DNA of 31,765 bases, taken from positions 1 to 31,765 of the IMG/VR virus record IMGVR_UViG_3300045974_001004; one strand, given 5' to 3'. Shown here piece by piece: positions 307 to 5,366 of the stretch (its first letter is position 1; every line of letters starts with the position of its first letter). Made by a program: the position numbers and the translations under genes. The notes beneath the pieces were generated by a model. That model made no database searches, had not been told where the DNA came from, and was given only the letters and a program-made list of their open reading frames with translations. This DNA comes from a virus.

Positions 307-608
307 AGGTCGAACCCCTGTAGTGCGGTTGTTCCTGCAAATGCAAACAGCAGTTTCCCGTCTTCTGTTAACTGTCTGGCATAGTTTCTTGCCTGGTCAT
401 TCAGTGCGCAGTAGCCTCTCCACAGAGCATCTGTGTATGTCGTATCTTTGTATCGGTTGCGTCTATAAATAGTGTTGCGCTGATTGCTGAGCGTTTTGGC
501 GCTGCTCTCGGCTTCTAAAAATAGGATCAGGTAAATGTTTTCAGTGCGCTTGGCGTCGCGATCTTCCTGAGTGAGCGCGTGGCGCTCTTGTATGGTGGAT
601 GCGTTCAT
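303..608 (-). CDS. Hypothetical phage protein in rha operon
   Basis: 101 aa, charged in the N-terminal third (QERHALTQEDRDAKRTEN), no transmembrane segment or recognised domain. The ATG at 608-606 overlaps the Rha stop codon by 4 bp (ATGA), and the 3' end overlaps the next gene in the same way, so the three leftward genes are probably translationally coupled. A longer in-frame reading extends upstream to about 1004 but lies entirely on the Rha gene in another frame, so the internal start is preferred. Function unknown; its place beside Rha suggests an accessory early or lysogeny role (inference). Confidence 0.65.
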   Translation of the reverse strand: MNASTIQERHALTQEDRDAKRTENIYLILFLEAESSAKTLSNQRNTIYRRNRYKDTTYTDALWRGYCALNDQARNYARQLTEDGKLLFAFAGTTALQGFDL

Positions 609-1402
609 GCTGCAACCCCACTCGCCAGCCGCATGTGCGAAGCATTTGCCGCAGCCGGCAGATACTTGCGCAGCGATGCAGCCAGTTCCATGCAGGCAGC
701 TTTGCAGTGCTGGTAAATGTCTTTGTAATGCAGACCAGCAGCCATTCCCTGCATCAGAGCCTTTTGCGCTGCCATTTCCACCACCGTCAGTTGACCGTGC
801 TGAAAGCAGTCCAGGCTGTCGCGGAAATTCTTGTCTGATGCCGCCTTTACCAACTCCAGCGCCGCGTACTCCATCTTGGTGATGGCCATAAAGTATTTGT
901 CGGCATGTGTGCTGCCTTGGGTGCGGGCGTAGGCCACAAACTCCTGCACGCAGCCACCCCAGGCCAGGCGCACCTGCTTGCCTTCCTGGCGGATCTGGCG
1001 CCACTCTGGACCCTGGCTGCGGTTGGCCTGTGCCAGCAGCGTGCGCTCCATCTGGTTGAAAGCGTCGATGTAGTCCAGTTTGAACTGCAATGCCTTCTTC
1101 CCCGTGAAGCCCATAGCCAGCAGGCTGAAGCCATCGCGGTTCAATGTGAACGCAGGTTCTTGGCGTACAGAACCGTTTGGTCCAACTACGTGCGTGAACG
1201 TGGGGGAAAAATATCCTTGACGTTCGCCAACCTCGACAGCCAGCGCCCGGATGCGTTTGAGCACATCGCCATGCGGTTTATTGAAGTGGCAGGCGACCGC
1301 CAATGATGTGGTGGTAGGGACGCCGTTATGGATGCCAACCAGGCTGACAAGCCCGCTGGCGTTGTGTTTTTTTGGCTGGCCGCCAAGCGTAATCGTCTGC
1401 AT
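605..1402 (-). CDS. rha: Rha family phage regulatory protein
   Basis: 265 aa. The N-terminal half (about residues 20-120) matches the pRha domain: SLAVACHFNKPHGDVLKRI, then a TLNRDGFSLLAMGFTGKKA core and a KLDYIDAFNQME segment, as in phage Rha proteins. The C-terminal half (about 125-265) is helical and not recognised. Rha was described in lambdoid phage phi-80/P22 relatives as a protein that interferes with phage growth in hosts lacking IHF; its biochemistry is poorly known, and the family often marks the lysogeny or immunity side of prophages. The start ATG has GGAG 6 nt upstream. It heads a three-gene leftward operon from a promoter at 1435-1463 that carries two copies of a repeat also present at the cro-like promoter, so it is likely under phage repressor control. 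Confidence 0.88.
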   Translation of the reverse strand: MQTITLGGQPKKHNASGLVSLVGIHNGVPTTTSLAVACHFNKPHGDVLKRIRALAVEVGERQGYFSPTFTHVVGPNGSVRQEPAFTLNRDGFSLLAMGFTGKKALQFKLDYIDAFNQMERTLLAQANRSQGPEWRQIRQEGKQVRLAWGGCVQEFVAYARTQGSTHADKYFMAITKMEYAALELVKAASDKNFRDSLDCFQHGQLTVVEMAAQKALMQGMAAGLHYKDIYQHCKAACMELAASLRKYLPAAANASHMRLASGVAA

Positions 1403-1434: not shown

Positions 1435-1463
1435 ATAGTACAAAACAGATTATTCTTTGTCAA
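1435..1463 (-). promoter_or_regulatory. Sigma70-type promoter of the rha operon
   Basis: On the minus strand TTGACA (1463-1458, perfect -35) is followed after 17 bp by TACTAT (1440-1435, -10, 4/6). Transcription would begin near 1428, leaving a leader of about 25 nt before the Rha ATG at 1402. One operator-like repeat occupies the spacer and a second lies just upstream of the -35. Confidence 0.75.
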
Positions 1464-1479
1464 TCCAAAACAGATTATT
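1442..1479. promoter_or_regulatory. Two operator-like direct repeats at the rha promoter
   Basis: The 13-mer AAAACAGATTATT occurs at 1442-1454 and 1467-1479, 25 bp apart. The second copy extends to ATCCAAAACAGATTATT. The core AAaCaGaTT is nearly its own reverse complement, as expected for a dimer-binding site. One copy fills the promoter spacer and the other abuts the -35, so a bound protein would block RNA polymerase. A third copy, with one change, lies at 4312-4328 before the cro-like gene. Which regulator binds is not shown by the sequence. Confidence 0.65.
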
Positions 1480-1490
1480 TATTTTTGGCC

Positions 1491-1516
1491 AAAAAAAAGA
1501 CCATCCGTAGATGGTC
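1491..1516 (-). terminator. Intrinsic terminator of the immunity operon
   Basis: Read on the minus strand, a perfect 7-bp stem GACCATC/GATGGTC (1516-1510 with 1505-1499) with the 4-nt loop TACG is followed by eight T residues (1498-1491). It sits 24 bp after the stop of the secreted-protein gene and ahead of the rha promoter, so it separates the repressor operon from the rha operon. Confidence 0.85.
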
Positions 1517-1539: not shown

Positions 1540-2001
1540 CTATTGTTCGATCTCAAACCTTGTCCACTTATCGGAAAGGATGGTGCTGTTTGCAGACTGA
1601 CGACGGGTGTAGTCAATTTTCAATTCGTCTGCAGTTGGGGTAATCCCATCAAGCTGGGCAATAGCGGCAACAAGGTGCTCCTTTAGAGCAGCCTTTGCGG
1701 GCAACTTTTTGACTGTTTTTAGCGCGGCCTCGTACTCAGCTTTGATCTGGGCCTTGTTTTTGACTATGCAACCTCGCCAGTCTGGTTCAACTTGTTCAGG
1801 CAAATCGTAACGTTCGCTACCGTTTTTCTTGGTCGCTGCAATACTGGCAGCCTGAGACCGCTCCGCGCTACACGCAATCGCGCCAGCACTAACCGTGCTC
1901 TGGTATCTCTGCAATGGAGTGCCTTTGTCAACTTCGGCTGCGTGGGCTGTGACACAAAGCGCGACTCCGGCTAAAGAGAATGAACGATAGAAGGATTGCA
2001 T
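1540..2001 (-). CDS. Secreted small protein at the end of the immunity operon
   Basis: 153 aa. The N-terminus is a typical Sec signal peptide: basic start, hydrophobic LAGVALCV, and a probable cleavage site after AHA (residues 19-21), leaving a mature protein of about 132 aa with two cysteines that could form a disulfide in the periplasm. The rest is charged and helical (KAQIKAEYEAALKTVKKL) with no recognised domain. It follows the DUF3037-like gene by 22 bp and precedes the intrinsic terminator, so it is probably expressed from the repressor operon in the lysogen. A small exported protein made from an immunity operon suggests superinfection exclusion or another lysogenic conversion role; this is inference only. 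A TACGAAAC box like those at the main operator lies about 25 bp before its start. Confidence 0.7.
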   Translation of the reverse strand: MQSFYRSFSLAGVALCVTAHAAEVDKGTPLQRYQSTVSAGAIACSAERSQAASIAATKKNGSERYDLPEQVEPDWRGCIVKNKAQIKAEYEAALKTVKKLPAKAALKEHLVAAIAQLDGITPTADELKIDYTRRQSANSTILSDKWTRFEIEQ

Positions 2002-2023
2002 TTATGACTTTTCTGTTGCGAAA

Positions 2024-2917
2024 TTACGAAACGATTTCGTCAATCAGTCTCGCTGCTTCCTCAGTGCTATGGGCTACATGCATTCGCACTTGCTTGCTTT
2101 TTTGAAAAGGCCAGGTCAGGTCGTCAATTTCATTCTCAATGGCTGAAAAATCGCTCTGGCTAAAGCCGGGGGCCCCATCAGGCGGGCGCAGCGCAATGAG
2201 AAAACCCGTGCCACTGTGCTGTGCAAAGTGGTCTATAGCAACGGTCATGTGTTGGCAGGCAGGCCCCAGCGCCGCCTTGCGGTAGACATCGCTCTTGTAG
2301 TGGCAAGAGACCATTGTTCCGTATGTAAAGCGGGGGAAAAACCCTACTTTCTCAAGCCAAACAGGCATGTCCAAGTAGTGTGCTTTTCCGTCGGGTGCTT
2401 TCACAACCACCGGGTCTTCACGGAATAGTTGCCTGGTAACCTCCGCTGCAAACGTAGCCTTTACCCGGGTTCTAAAGTCTGCCGTGCTGACGCTGTAGGA
2501 ATCTGCTTTGGGCTTGTCGGCCACATTGCAGTTGATGTGCACCATTCTGGCGTACAGGTGTTCAACAATCTCCAGCGCCGAATTGCCGGCGGTTTCACGC
2601 CACGGGCTCAGGCTAATTTGCTGGCTCACGGGGAGAATGTCGCTCGCCTTTTGAGCTTGTGCAAGGTGTTCTTGCATAGCGCGCAGCAAAAATCCATATT
2701 GCTCCAGACCATGTGGGCCATATAAACATTCAAATCCGCGGGCATTGGGTATAAGTCGAAATAGTGGTTGCCCACGTGCTGCGGAAAATGCCACGCCAAT
2801 GTTGATCACTTCGCCGGTAACAATGTCCGGATGCACACGGATGGTGCACCATTTGCCAGTCACCATGGGTTTATCCATGGGCACTGCATCGTCGAACATG
2901 TTAGAAGTCAATGACAT
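2024..2917 (-). CDS. DUF3037-like protein, partner of the HipA-like kinase
   Basis: 297 aa. Residues about 22-60 carry the DUF3037 signature WCTIRVHP...GEVINIGVAF, and the C-terminal part (IENEIDDLTWPF...STEEAARLIDEI) has no fold I recognise. Function is unknown for this family, but as I recall DUF3037 genes commonly sit next to genes for HipA-like kinases, as here: the start overlaps the kinase stop by 17 bp. I infer that the two proteins act together, DUF3037 as antitoxin, adaptor or substrate. The start is uncertain: ATG 2917 has no clear ribosome site, and Met7 at 2899 is equally weak, so translation is probably coupled to the kinase gene. No signal peptide or membrane segment is visible. 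Confidence 0.72.
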   Translation of the reverse strand: MSLTSNMFDDAVPMDKPMVTGKWCTIRVHPDIVTGEVINIGVAFSAARGQPLFRLIPNARGFECLYGPHGLEQYGFLLRAMQEHLAQAQKASDILPVSQQISLSPWRETAGNSALEIVEHLYARMVHINCNVADKPKADSYSVSTADFRTRVKATFAAEVTRQLFREDPVVVKAPDGKAHYLDMPVWLEKVGFFPRFTYGTMVSCHYKSDVYRKAALGPACQHMTVAIDHFAQHSGTGFLIALRPPDGAPGFSQSDFSAIENEIDDLTWPFQKSKQVRMHVAHSTEEAARLIDEIVS

Positions 2918-3875
2918 TTTGGAACCGGACGGCGTATTTTTCGGGTGTAGGGCGTTCAGCTAGGTCGCCGTGAAGCATACCTAATCTTTTGCGCATAAGG
3001 TCGTCAATCAGCCAGGCGCGTGTCTTTACAAAGTCCAGCCAGCCTTGGCGGCTTGTAGCATCCGGCAATAGCAATTGTGCCCAGTAGGTTAACTCGCCCC
3101 AATGTTCATGCAACCGCATCGGAAGGTACTCTATGGCCCACAGGTCGTGGAGGTTAACCCCATTCCCACCGGCAATGCGGCTGTGCAATTGGTTCTCAAA
3201 TAGGCGTTCTGGGTTGAGGCTCTGTAAGCTCCAGTCTTGGTCGCTCGGCTTCTCACAGACTAGCCGGTCGTGGTCGATGACCGCAAAATCCTTGGGGCCC
3301 AGGCGCAGCAAGTTGTTGCAATGCCTGTCAGCGTTGGCCAATTGCTCGTCGAGGAAGATGGTCATGCTCAGTTGCTGCCAGGCGCAAATTTCTTTGGTAA
3401 TGATCGGGGTCAGTGTGTTGTTGAACTGCACAACCGCACTCTTGGCCTGAAGCCGCTCGCTGCAAAAGGCTGGCCAGTGGGTCACGTTGGGTGGTAGATC
3501 ACGTAGCCATCCCTTGCGTGGTTTGAGCTTTGCAAGGGGAATATTCACAATGGCAGCGGAGCTGGGCTGTTTTACGCCCATCAAATTTGCAATAAGCCAG
3601 CCTGTGGTTTCATTCATCAAGCCACGGTGGCCTGGGCCGGCAGATGGGAACAGCTTGGCACACACCTCCATTCGGCCGTGGGTTGGGTGGTTTATTTCGG
3701 CGGCGTGTACCAGGCCATGGTGCAGGTCTTCGTTGCTCATCCATTCCAAAAAACCCAGATACGCCACGTGCCCTAGTTTTGCAACTTTGTGGGTGCGCGG
3801 TGGGGTTTTGGCGTAATAGGCGGCGCTAAGACCGCTCGAGTAAGTCTGAGATTCTTCTGGCCTCGGTGTGGTCAT
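2901..3875 (-). CDS. HipA-like Ser/Thr kinase (HipA_2 type)
   Basis: 324 aa. The expected HipA-kinase elements are in order: an ATP-binding lysine in VCAKLF (K74), an acidic residue in the following helix (NET, E89), the catalytic loop NADRHCNNLL (N181, D183, R184, H185, N188) and a metal-binding D-x-D in VIDHDRL (D201, D203). Length fits the short HipA_2 type rather than full HipA (about 440 aa). Relatives of HipA phosphorylate a translation factor such as glutamyl-tRNA synthetase and cause dormancy; the target here is unknown. The start overlaps the repressor-like gene by 50 bp and has its own AGGG site; the 3' end overlaps the DUF3037-like gene. So the order is HTH protein, kinase, DUF3037, resembling a HipB/HipA toxin-antitoxin arrangement built into the phage immunity operon. 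All catalytic residues are present, so an active kinase is likely. Confidence 0.8.
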   Translation of the reverse strand: MTTPRPEESQTYSSGLSAAYYAKTPPRTHKVAKLGHVAYLGFLEWMSNEDLHHGLVHAAEINHPTHGRMEVCAKLFPSAGPGHRGLMNETTGWLIANLMGVKQPSSAAIVNIPLAKLKPRKGWLRDLPPNVTHWPAFCSERLQAKSAVVQFNNTLTPIITKEICAWQQLSMTIFLDEQLANADRHCNNLLRLGPKDFAVIDHDRLVCEKPSDQDWSLQSLNPERLFENQLHSRIAGGNGVNLHDLWAIEYLPMRLHEHWGELTYWAQLLLPDATSRQGWLDFVKTRAWLIDDLMRKRLGMLHGDLAERPTPEKYAVRFQNVIDF

Positions 3876-4233
3876 TGATTTCCCTGGGTGGATTTGCGCC
3901 GAGTGACAGATCGGCGATGCTGTTAAGCGTGGCCCACAGTGTGCTGGGCGATTGTTCTTTGCGCTCGGCCTGGATAAACCGCCGCAGTGTGGTGCGCGCT
4001 TCTTCGCTTATGCCGTTGAGCATGTCGTCAGGATCCAGGCCATGGGTAAGCCAGGCGGGTGCTACACCAAGAATGACTGCAATGCGGTTGATGTCTTCGA
4101 GCGTCGGCTGGGTTTTTCCCGCTAACCACTTTTGGACACCACCGGGCGTCATTTCCAGGGACTCCGCGAGTCTTTCCTGAGTTATCCCAGCCGCTTTTCG
4201 GGCCCGATTGGCTCTATCTCTCCAGTTTTCCAT
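3826..4233 (-). CDS. XRE-family HTH repressor, CI-like without protease domain
   Basis: 135 aa from the ATG at 4233 (AGGG about 11 nt upstream). An upstream in-frame extension to 4317 would run across the operators and is rejected. Residues about 8-62 form an XRE helix-turn-helix: RARKAAGITQERLAESLEM, then GGVQKWLAGKTQPTLEDINR and a closing AVILGVAPAWL. The remaining 70 residues are charged and helical and contain none of the Ser/Lys peptidase S24 motifs of CI/LexA repressors. Position (divergent from a Cro-like gene, across three repeated boxes) makes it the likely lysogeny repressor. Because it is translated in an operon with a HipA-like kinase, it may also be the HipB-type antitoxin. Without an S24 domain, RecA-driven self-cleavage is not expected, so induction must work differently (inference). 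Confidence 0.82.
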   Translation of the reverse strand: MENWRDRANRARKAAGITQERLAESLEMTPGGVQKWLAGKTQPTLEDINRIAVILGVAPAWLTHGLDPDDMLNGISEEARTTLRRFIQAERKEQSPSTLWATLNSIADLSLGANPPREINDHTEARRISDLLERS

Positions 4234-4256
4234 GCAAAGAGTTTCCCTCGTTCCAA

Positions 4257-4291
4257 TACGAAACGGAATATACGAAACATATTTACGAATC
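4257..4291. promoter_or_regulatory. Triple TACGAA operator in the immunity region
   Basis: TACGAAAC at 4257-4264 and 4271-4278, and TACGAATC at 4284-4291, all in the same orientation with 14- and 13-bp steps, lie between the divergent repressor and Cro-like genes. They overlap the inferred -10/-35 elements of both promoters, like the three-site operator of lambdoid phages. The binding protein is inferred to be the XRE repressor and/or the Cro-like protein. Confidence 0.65.
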
Positions 4292-4311: not shown

Positions 4312-4328
4312 ATCCAAAACAGATTGTT
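4312..4328. promoter_or_regulatory. Third copy of the rha-promoter operator
   Basis: ATCCAAAACAGATTGTT shares its first 14 bases exactly with the copy at 1463-1476 before rha. It overlaps the inferred transcription start of the rightward early promoter. The same phage regulator probably controls both transcription units. Confidence 0.6.
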
Positions 4329-4336
4329 ATTGACTT

Positions 4337-4726
4337 ATGAACCTACGCGACTACCTCAAAGCCAACCGCATTACTCAGGCTGAATTTGCAAAAAAGCTGG
4401 TTCCACCCGTTAGTCAAGGCAAGGTCAACCACTGGCTACACGGCGTGCGCCGGGTGTCTCTGGTGGAGGCCATTCAGATCGAACGCATTACGGCGGGAGA
4501 GGTCAGCATGCTTGACCTTGCGCAGGTAAAAGCCCCCACCAATGCTGTATATCAAGCTACTAAAAACGTAGCAAAACCAGAAATTTACCGAACCGGAACC
4601 ATCCGCCGCCATGACTCCCGCCGTGAGCACGACGCCATAGACCCCGAAGGTGGACGCCGCGAGACATTCGGTACGGTGAGTGGTGACAGTGCCAAGCAAA
4701 TAGACGCTGCTAATCAGGGGGCCTGA
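4337..4726 (+). CDS. Cro/YdaS-like HTH regulator
   Basis: 129 aa. Residues 1-57 fit the YdaS/Cro-like fold: MNLRDYLKANRITQAEFAKK, then VSQGKVNHWLHGVRRVSLVEA and an IERITAGEVS ending typical of YdaS proteins, which act as Cro analogues in many proteobacterial prophages. The remaining 70 residues are charged and probably disordered (RRHDSRREHDAIDPEGGRR), longer than most YdaS proteins. It is the first gene of the rightward early operon and diverges from the repressor. No Shine-Dalgarno sequence is visible in the short leader. Expected role: shuts off repressor synthesis to favour lytic growth (family knowledge). Confidence 0.8.
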   Translation: MNLRDYLKANRITQAEFAKKLVPPVSQGKVNHWLHGVRRVSLVEAIQIERITAGEVSMLDLAQVKAPTNAVYQATKNVAKPEIYRTGTIRRHDSRREHDAIDPEGGRRETFGTVSGDSAKQIDAANQGA

Positions 4727-4793: not shown

Positions 4794-4831
4794 GCCTGCC
4801 CGGTGTTCGCGCACCTGGCAGGCATTTTTTT
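4794..4831 (+). terminator. Strong intrinsic terminator between cro-like and cII-like genes
   Basis: GCCTGCC (4794-4800) pairs perfectly with GGCAGGC (4817-4823), extended by an inner GGTG/CACC stem (4802-4805 with 4812-4815) around a TTCGCG loop, then A and seven T residues (4825-4831). It precedes the CII-like start by 20 bp. This is the position of tR1 in phage lambda and suggests that the replication genes require read-through or antitermination. Confidence 0.85.
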
Positions 4832-4850
4832 GATTAAAGAGGTGGCCTTC

Positions 4851-5366
4851 ATGGGTATTAGTGTCCGCACATCGTCGCTTCAAAACAATGGCAACGCACT
4901 CGCCATATCCGCCATTGGGTTGGATGTAAGCGATGCGGCCTATCACACAGCCAGCGCGTTCCCTGGTGGTGTGCCTGCATTGGCGCAGCGCCTTGGAATG
5001 AGCCAGAACACGCTGGCCCACAAGGTGAGCCTGAACAACGACACGCACCACTTGACCCTGCGCGAGGCGGTGGCCATGCAAGAGGTCAGCCAAGACAAGC
5101 GCATCACCCAGGCCATGTGTGCAGCATTGGGTGGCGTATTCCTGGACCTGAGCTGTGAAAACAAAGCCACAACCATGGAGCAGGTGATGCACATGGCCAA
5201 AGAGTTTGGCGATGTGCTTATCAGCATCAACGGTGCGGTGGCCGATGGCAAGGTCACACCGAATGAAATGCAGGACTGTGAGCGCCAAGCAGCCGAGTTG
5301 ATGGCCGCCTTGAATGCCGTGCTTGCGCAGGTGCGCAGCATGATGCCCAAGCCTCCAGCGGCATGA
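4851..5366 (+). CDS. CII-like phage regulator (Phage_CP76 family)
   Basis: 171 aa from ATG 4851, which has AGAGG 8 nt before it. The central segment (about residues 26-95) shows the Phage_CP76/CII pattern: DAAYHTASAFPGGVPALAQR, then LGMSQNTLAHKVSLNNDTHH and LTLREAVAMQEVSQDKRI. In P2- and lambda-like phages these proteins activate lysogeny promoters or early functions. The C-terminal third (MEQVMHMAKEFGDVL...CERQAAELMAAL) is helical and could mediate oligomerisation. It lies between a strong terminator and the primase gene, in the usual place of a cII gene. Confidence 0.85.
   Translation: MGISVRTSSLQNNGNALAISAIGLDVSDAAYHTASAFPGGVPALAQRLGMSQNTLAHKVSLNNDTHHLTLREAVAMQEVSQDKRITQAMCAALGGVFLDLSCENKATTMEQVMHMAKEFGDVLISINGAVADGKVTPNEMQDCERQAAELMAALNAVLAQVRSMMPKPPAA

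What the first reader, a model, noticed from the sequence alone, without database searches (positions are those of the whole stretch)
1540..4233. Repressor, HipA-like kinase and DUF3037 protein form one immunity operon
Seen: four leftward genes with overlaps of 50 and 17 bp and a 22-bp gap, closed by one terminator. The first is an XRE protein in the CI position, the second a HipA-like kinase with all catalytic residues (K74, NADRH, D-x-D), the third a DUF3037-like partner, the fourth secreted. Known: HipA kinases are toxins controlled by XRE HipB; DUF3037 has no assigned function. Inference: the phage repressor may double as antitoxin, so loss of repression or of the prophage frees the kinase, giving abortive infection, superinfection immunity or stabilised lysogeny. 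This is the best candidate for an undescribed system.
Basis: partly seen in the sequence, partly recalled or inferred. Interest (0 to 1): 0.82.

Follow-up and report, generated by a model that had tools for sequence, protein, structure and literature searches.

The report
HipA-like kinase pair in phage immunity operon
A prophage carries, on the same transcript as its lysogeny repressor, a divergent version of an already described anti-phage gene pair (a HipA-like kinase and its probable DUF3037 antitoxin), and this placement recurs in many unrelated prophages, which suggests that such phages arm their hosts against rival phages with a toxin kinase.

Summary
Four leftward genes (XRE repressor 3826-4233, HipA-like kinase 2901-3875, DUF3037-like protein 2024-2917, putative secreted protein 1540-2001) are packed with overlaps of 50 and 17 bp and a 22-bp gap, and end at a terminator at 1516-1499. 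The kinase + DUF3037 pair is not undescribed: it is PADLOC candidate PDC-M66, validated as DS-6/HipAD in E. coli and in the Retron-Sda1 operon, where deleting DUF3037 is toxic, deleting the kinase abolishes defence and deleting the HTH gene has no effect. So DUF3037, not the repressor, is the likely antitoxin. The window pair is a very divergent relative: about 25-30% identity to its nearest kin, and no PADLOC or Pfam HipA_2 hit of its own. What is new is the setting. In 10 of 10 phage- or prophage-borne pairs found, the pair follows the CI-type repressor on the same strand (the lambda rexAB position), with mutually unrelated repressors and in separate branches of the kinase tree; none of 17 non-phage pairs is so placed. 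Best reading: a rex-position, lysogen-expressed, HipAD-like toxin-antitoxin defence cassette. The repressor-as-antitoxin idea is not supported.

The parts
3826..4233 (-). CI-position XRE repressor, 135 aa, HTH_3, no S24/LexA peptidase domain
   Evidence: diverges from Cro-like 4337-4726
2901..3875 (-). HipA-like kinase, 324 aa, divergent HipA_2 / PDC-M66A-type, catalytic residues intact (K74, E89, D176, D183, N188, D201)
   Evidence: (PHROG 11186, E 5e-25)
2024..2917 (-). DUF3037-like partner, 297 aa, probable antitoxin
   Evidence: (PHROG 27972, E 3e-18)
1540..2001 (-). putative exported 153-aa protein, last gene of the operon; no relatives found, membership in the system doubtful
   Evidence: signal peptide by eye only
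1499..1516 (-). intrinsic terminator closing the operon
4315..4325 (-). candidate operator AATCTGTTTTG in the cI/cro intergenic region, beside the cro start
1441..1476 (-). two further copies of AATCTGTTTTG (1441-1451, 1466-1476), 25 bp apart, on either side of the -35 hexamer of the pRha promoter (TTGACA starting at 1463)
605..1402 (-). pRha-family regulatory protein, separate transcription unit beyond the terminator, apparently under the same operator
4337..4726 (+). Cro-like divergent regulator
4803..5366 (+). CII-like regulator (Phage_CP76)

Best explanation
The prophage carries a lysogen-expressed, HipAD-like toxin-antitoxin defence cassette in the lambda rexAB position. The CI-type repressor and the kinase/DUF3037 pair are transcribed together in the lysogen. 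DUF3037 holds the kinase inactive. Infection by a competing phage disturbs that balance, the kinase is released and phosphorylates a host target (in HipA and HipT an aminoacyl-tRNA synthetase), and growth of cell and invader stops. The repressor supplies lysogen-specific transcription only; it is not the antitoxin. Shown here: operon anatomy, intact catalytic residues, conserved pairing of kinase and DUF3037, recurrent cI-operon placement. Inferred from tested relatives: the kinase is toxin and defence effector, DUF3037 is antitoxin. Not known: trigger and target.
For: DUF3037 lies next to the kinase in almost every locus, usually with a 4-bp overlap. Relatives were tested by others: Retron-Sda1 operon, kinase deletion abolishes defence against Bas51, DUF3037 deletion is toxic, HTH deletion has no effect (PMC12548924); DS-6/HipAD, a catalytic mutant loses defence and AlphaFold3 predicts that the two proteins bind each other (PMC13092281). 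In 10 of 10 phage-borne pairs a CI-type HTH gene is the first or second gene upstream on the same strand, against 0 of 17 non-phage pairs (a Fisher test with 11 phage loci, counting one kinase without DUF3037, gave p 5e-8). In the kinase tree the window falls in a clade of five, all cI-linked (support 97/94), and well-supported branches force at least 4 changes of the trait, so the slot was probably filled more than once. The cassette is accessory: GC 0.538 against 0.607 for the rest of the phage, below any equally long stretch there; absent from 108 loci of related phages, about 35 of which reach back to CII.
Against: No function was tested for this divergent branch. The window kinase scores in neither PADLOC PDC-M66A nor Pfam HipA_2; DUF3037 is sub-threshold. 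AF2 models are weak (pLDDT 68 and 73). DS-6B carries a DUF1829 domain that the window protein lacks. Co-transcription is inferred from spacing and terminator, not measured. Non-phage context was judged by eye. The 10 phage loci are not fully independent: three belong to one Moraxellaceae-type branch.
Confidence: 0.7

Rival explanations
1. The phage repressor is itself the (co-)antitoxin, as HipB is for HipA: it binds the kinase, so loss of repression or of the prophage frees the toxin.
For: XRE + kinase in one operon recalls hipBA; the two genes overlap by 50 bp. In L146 a small HTH-like protein overlaps a related kinase by 4 bp and no DUF3037 is found.
Against: The pair occurs without any adjacent XRE on plasmids and chromosomes. 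Repressors next to phage-borne pairs are unrelated outside the HTH, some with S24 domains. HTH deletion did not affect Sda1 defence while DUF3037 deletion was toxic.
Confidence: 0.08
2. An addiction module that stabilises the prophage: loss of the prophage frees the kinase and kills cured cells; phage defence is secondary or absent.
For: TA-like arrangement; DUF3037 deletion toxic in a relative; relatives sit on very small plasmids, where an addiction role would make sense.
Against: Tested relatives defend against phage and need the kinase for it. Chromosomal copies without a mobile element are common.
Confidence: 0.15
3. A control module of the lysis-lysogeny decision: the kinase phosphorylates phage or host regulators and so biases maintenance or induction, as RexA is reported to influence the lambda switch.
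For: Repeated placement on the repressor transcript. The repressor has no S24 domain, so induction must run through another route.
Against: The pair is also common outside phages, with no switch to control; no candidate substrate is known.
Confidence: 0.07

Closest known systems
HipAD / DS-6 (Brenes & Laub 2025, as cited in DefensePredictor, PMC13092281) = PADLOC PDC-M66; HipA-DUF3037 part of Retron-Sda1 (PMC12548924)
   Same: HipA-like kinase next to a DUF3037 protein; intact catalytic residues; HipAD was reported from E. coli prophages
   Different: Very low identity; the window kinase falls outside the PDC-M66A and HipA_2 models; no DUF1829 domain; sits on the transcript of the phage repressor. 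The position of HipAD within E. coli prophages could not be checked (paper not held).
lambda rexAB and RexABpp of Pseudomonas putida prophage P1 (PMC12894663)
   Same: Position downstream of the CI repressor, on the same strand; exclusion of other phages by the lysogen (for the window, proposed only)
   Different: Kinase/DUF3037 instead of RexA/RexB; different mechanism; no sequence relation was tested
HipBA
   Same: HipA-superfamily kinase in an operon behind an XRE gene
   Different: The antitoxin is probably not the XRE protein; no match to the HipA domain families
HipBST (PMC10627512)
   Same: Tripartite layout in which DNA binding and neutralisation are on separate proteins; Foldseek finds HipS-HipT (8ezr) among kinase folds
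   Different: The third protein is DUF3037-like (297 aa), not HipS, the homologue of HipA N-subdomain 1; gene order differs

Membership tests
HipAD / DS-6 / PDC-M66 | HipA_2-type kinase with catalytic K, E, D...N, D residues | tested here: met
   Residues invariant or nearly so in 17 relatives including the window; 9 of 17 relatives hit PF20613 HipA_2
HipAD / DS-6 / PDC-M66 | Adjacent DUF3037 partner | tested here: met
   17-bp overlap; PF11236 sub-threshold for the window itself, but homologous to members that score in PF11236 and PDC-M66B
HipAD / DS-6 / PDC-M66 | Window proteins match the PADLOC PDC-M66A and PDC-M66B models | tested here: not met
   No PDC-M66A hit; PDC-M66B E 0.05 only. Hence described as a divergent relative that probably works like HipAD, not as a member of PDC-M66 as PADLOC defines it
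HipAD / DS-6 / PDC-M66 | Kinase-dependent defence, neutralised by DUF3037 | not testable with these tools
   Shown for relatives only
HipBA toxin-antitoxin | XRE protein is the antitoxin | tested here: inconclusive
   Unrelated repressors, pairs without XRE, and published deletion data for a relative argue against it
HipBA toxin-antitoxin | Full HipA domain architecture | tested here: not met
   No HipA-family Pfam or NCBIfam match for the window kinase
rexAB-type exclusion | Location immediately downstream of cI on its transcript | tested here: met
   Position and strand; recurrent in 10 phage-borne pairs. Co-transcription itself inferred
rexAB-type exclusion | RexA/RexB homology | not tested
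   No RexA or RexB sequence was compared; no Rex family appears among the Pfam and PHROG hits

The most novel reading that the evidence does not exclude
The cI-linked clade is a lysogeny-status guard: kinase, DUF3037 and phage repressor act as one unit that fires when the repressor is inactivated, for example by an anti-repressor of an incoming phage, so that immunity and abortive infection are coupled.
Probability: 0.08. Interest if true: 0.8.

Novelty: new variant of a known kind. Interest (0 to 1): 0.45.

Why it matters
HipA-DUF3037 pairs have only just been recognised as defence systems. Here a divergent, phage-borne branch is found, invisible to current defence-finding models, that sits on the lysogeny-repressor transcript in prophages with unrelated repressors. 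That gives a simple handle for finding more of them (look downstream of cI) and makes testable whether prophages in beta- and gammaproteobacteria use kinase toxins the way lambda uses rexAB.

Tried and rejected
Single-protein scans for the window kinase found no relatives in viral or genome contigs nor in plasmids; relatives were reached only through the Moraxella phages and profile searches. PDB sequence search gave nothing useful for either protein. Foldseek of the DUF3037 model gave no significant match; of the kinase model only generic protein kinases and, lower down, HipS-HipT, on a weak model. Rejected: a chance arrangement (conserved pairing and residues), a decayed kinase (catalytic residues kept), the repressor as antitoxin. 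The secreted protein was considered part of the system because L156 carries a lipoprotein-like ORF between its CI and kinase and L006 one after DUF3037, but no homology was found, so it is left as doubtful cargo. Brenes & Laub 2025 is not held.

Full report
Observation. The XRE protein has a clear HTH_3 domain and no S24 peptidase match. It diverges from a Cro-like gene and a CII gene, so this is the immunity region of a temperate phage. The window is a whole IMG/VR record of 31,765 bases, with no host genome held.

What the pair is. The window kinase has no Pfam, NCBIfam (above cut-off) or PADLOC match of its own; it matches PHROG 11186 (E 5e-25). The partner matches PHROG 27972 (E 3e-18) and, weakly, PF11236 and PDC-M66B. 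Moraxella phages Mcat22 and Mcat18 carry relatives of both, adjacent, behind a phage-repressor gene. Profiles built from these reached about 30 loci. Among 17 representatives, 9 kinases hit HipA_2 and 9 hit PDC-M66A; 4 partners hit PDC-M66B and 5 hit DUF3037. So the window pair belongs by homology to the HipA_2-DUF3037 superfamily but lies outside the current PADLOC models. Catalytic residues are kept throughout.

What is known. PMC12548924 identified HipA/DUF3037 as PDC-M66 beside Retron-Sda1: kinase deletion abolished defence against Bas51, DUF3037 deletion was toxic, and HTH, ncRNA and RT were dispensable. PMC13092281 validated DS-6 (= HipAD, found independently in a study of E. coli prophages), with loss of defence in a catalytic mutant and a predicted complex. 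The pair is therefore not undescribed, and its antitoxin is probably DUF3037.

Role of the repressor. Pairs on plasmids and in chromosomes mostly lack an adjacent XRE gene. In phages, the adjoining repressors fall into several types with no similarity to each other beyond the HTH: S24 type in L006, L156 and L157; a short type in Mcat22 and L004; another in D14P and L136; singletons in the window, L147 and L153. A protein that had to fit the kinase would be expected to be conserved with it. The repressor is better seen as the provider of lysogen-specific expression.

Placement. Ten non-redundant phage or prophage loci carry the pair: the window, Mcat22, L004, Pseudomonas phage D14P, an Acinetobacter prophage (L006), L136 (the same virus as L154), L156, L157, L147, L153. 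In all of them a CI-type HTH gene is the first or, in L156, the second gene upstream on the same strand, most with a divergent cro or CII gene nearby. L146 has CI, a small HTH gene and a kinase but no DUF3037; L139 has an HTH gene and a kinase in uncertain context. Of 17 non-phage pairs none is so placed, and 10 further loci found with the PDC-M66B model look chromosomal without an adjacent repressor. The Fisher p of 5e-8 used 11 phage loci, L146 included; non-phage status was judged from neighbouring genes by eye.

Evolution. The window kinase groups with L136, Mcat22, L004 and L156 (97/94), all cI-linked; well-supported branches require at least four changes of the trait over the tree. Many branches are long, so deeper placements are uncertain. 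The cassette is GC-poor relative to the phage (0.538 against 0.607), and no relative of kinase or DUF3037 is present in 108 loci of phages related through primase or terminase, about 35 of which include CII; many of the others are short fragments.

Regulation. AATCTGTTTTG occurs three times exactly in the window, where 0.43 matches are expected even with one mismatch allowed: once beside the cro start and twice around the -35 of the pRha promoter, just beyond the operon terminator. The likely binder is CI or Cro; pRha would then belong to the same regulon. This is inference.

Mechanism. Most likely: expression in the lysogen, neutralisation by DUF3037, release of the kinase on infection by another phage, phosphorylation of a host translation factor, growth arrest. 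Trigger and target are unknown. AF2 models and Foldseek agree with a kinase fold but add nothing on the partner.

Verdict. Observation confirmed; interpretation partly supported; a new variant of a known kind, of moderate interest because of its recurrent, repressor-linked placement and its invisibility to current defence models.

Noticed in passing
window 1441-1476 and 4315-4325: Three exact copies of AATCTGTTTTG: two around the -35 of the pRha promoter and one beside the cro start, suggesting that pRha (605-1402) is under the same operator as the lysogeny switch.
   Followed up: partly
window 3826-4233: The repressor lacks an S24/LexA peptidase domain, so induction probably does not go through RecA-stimulated cleavage; an anti-repressor route (pRha?) is possible.
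   Followed up: partly
L146 7225-9137: Prophage with CI, a second small HTH protein overlapping a related kinase by 4 bp, and no DUF3037: a possible kinase variant with a different partner.
   Followed up: no
L156 5427-5849 and L006 7859-8308: Small lipoprotein-like ORFs next to the pair in other prophages, in different positions and without evident similarity to the window's secreted protein.
   Followed up: partly
L007 (3.85-kb Klebsiella plasmid) and similar 3.5-4.7-kb plasmids: Very small plasmids devote close to half of their length to a HipA-like kinase and a DUF3037-like gene.
   Followed up: partly
window 4256-4278: Direct repeat ATACGAAAC, two copies 14 bp apart, just upstream of the repressor start; possible further operator.
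   Followed up: no
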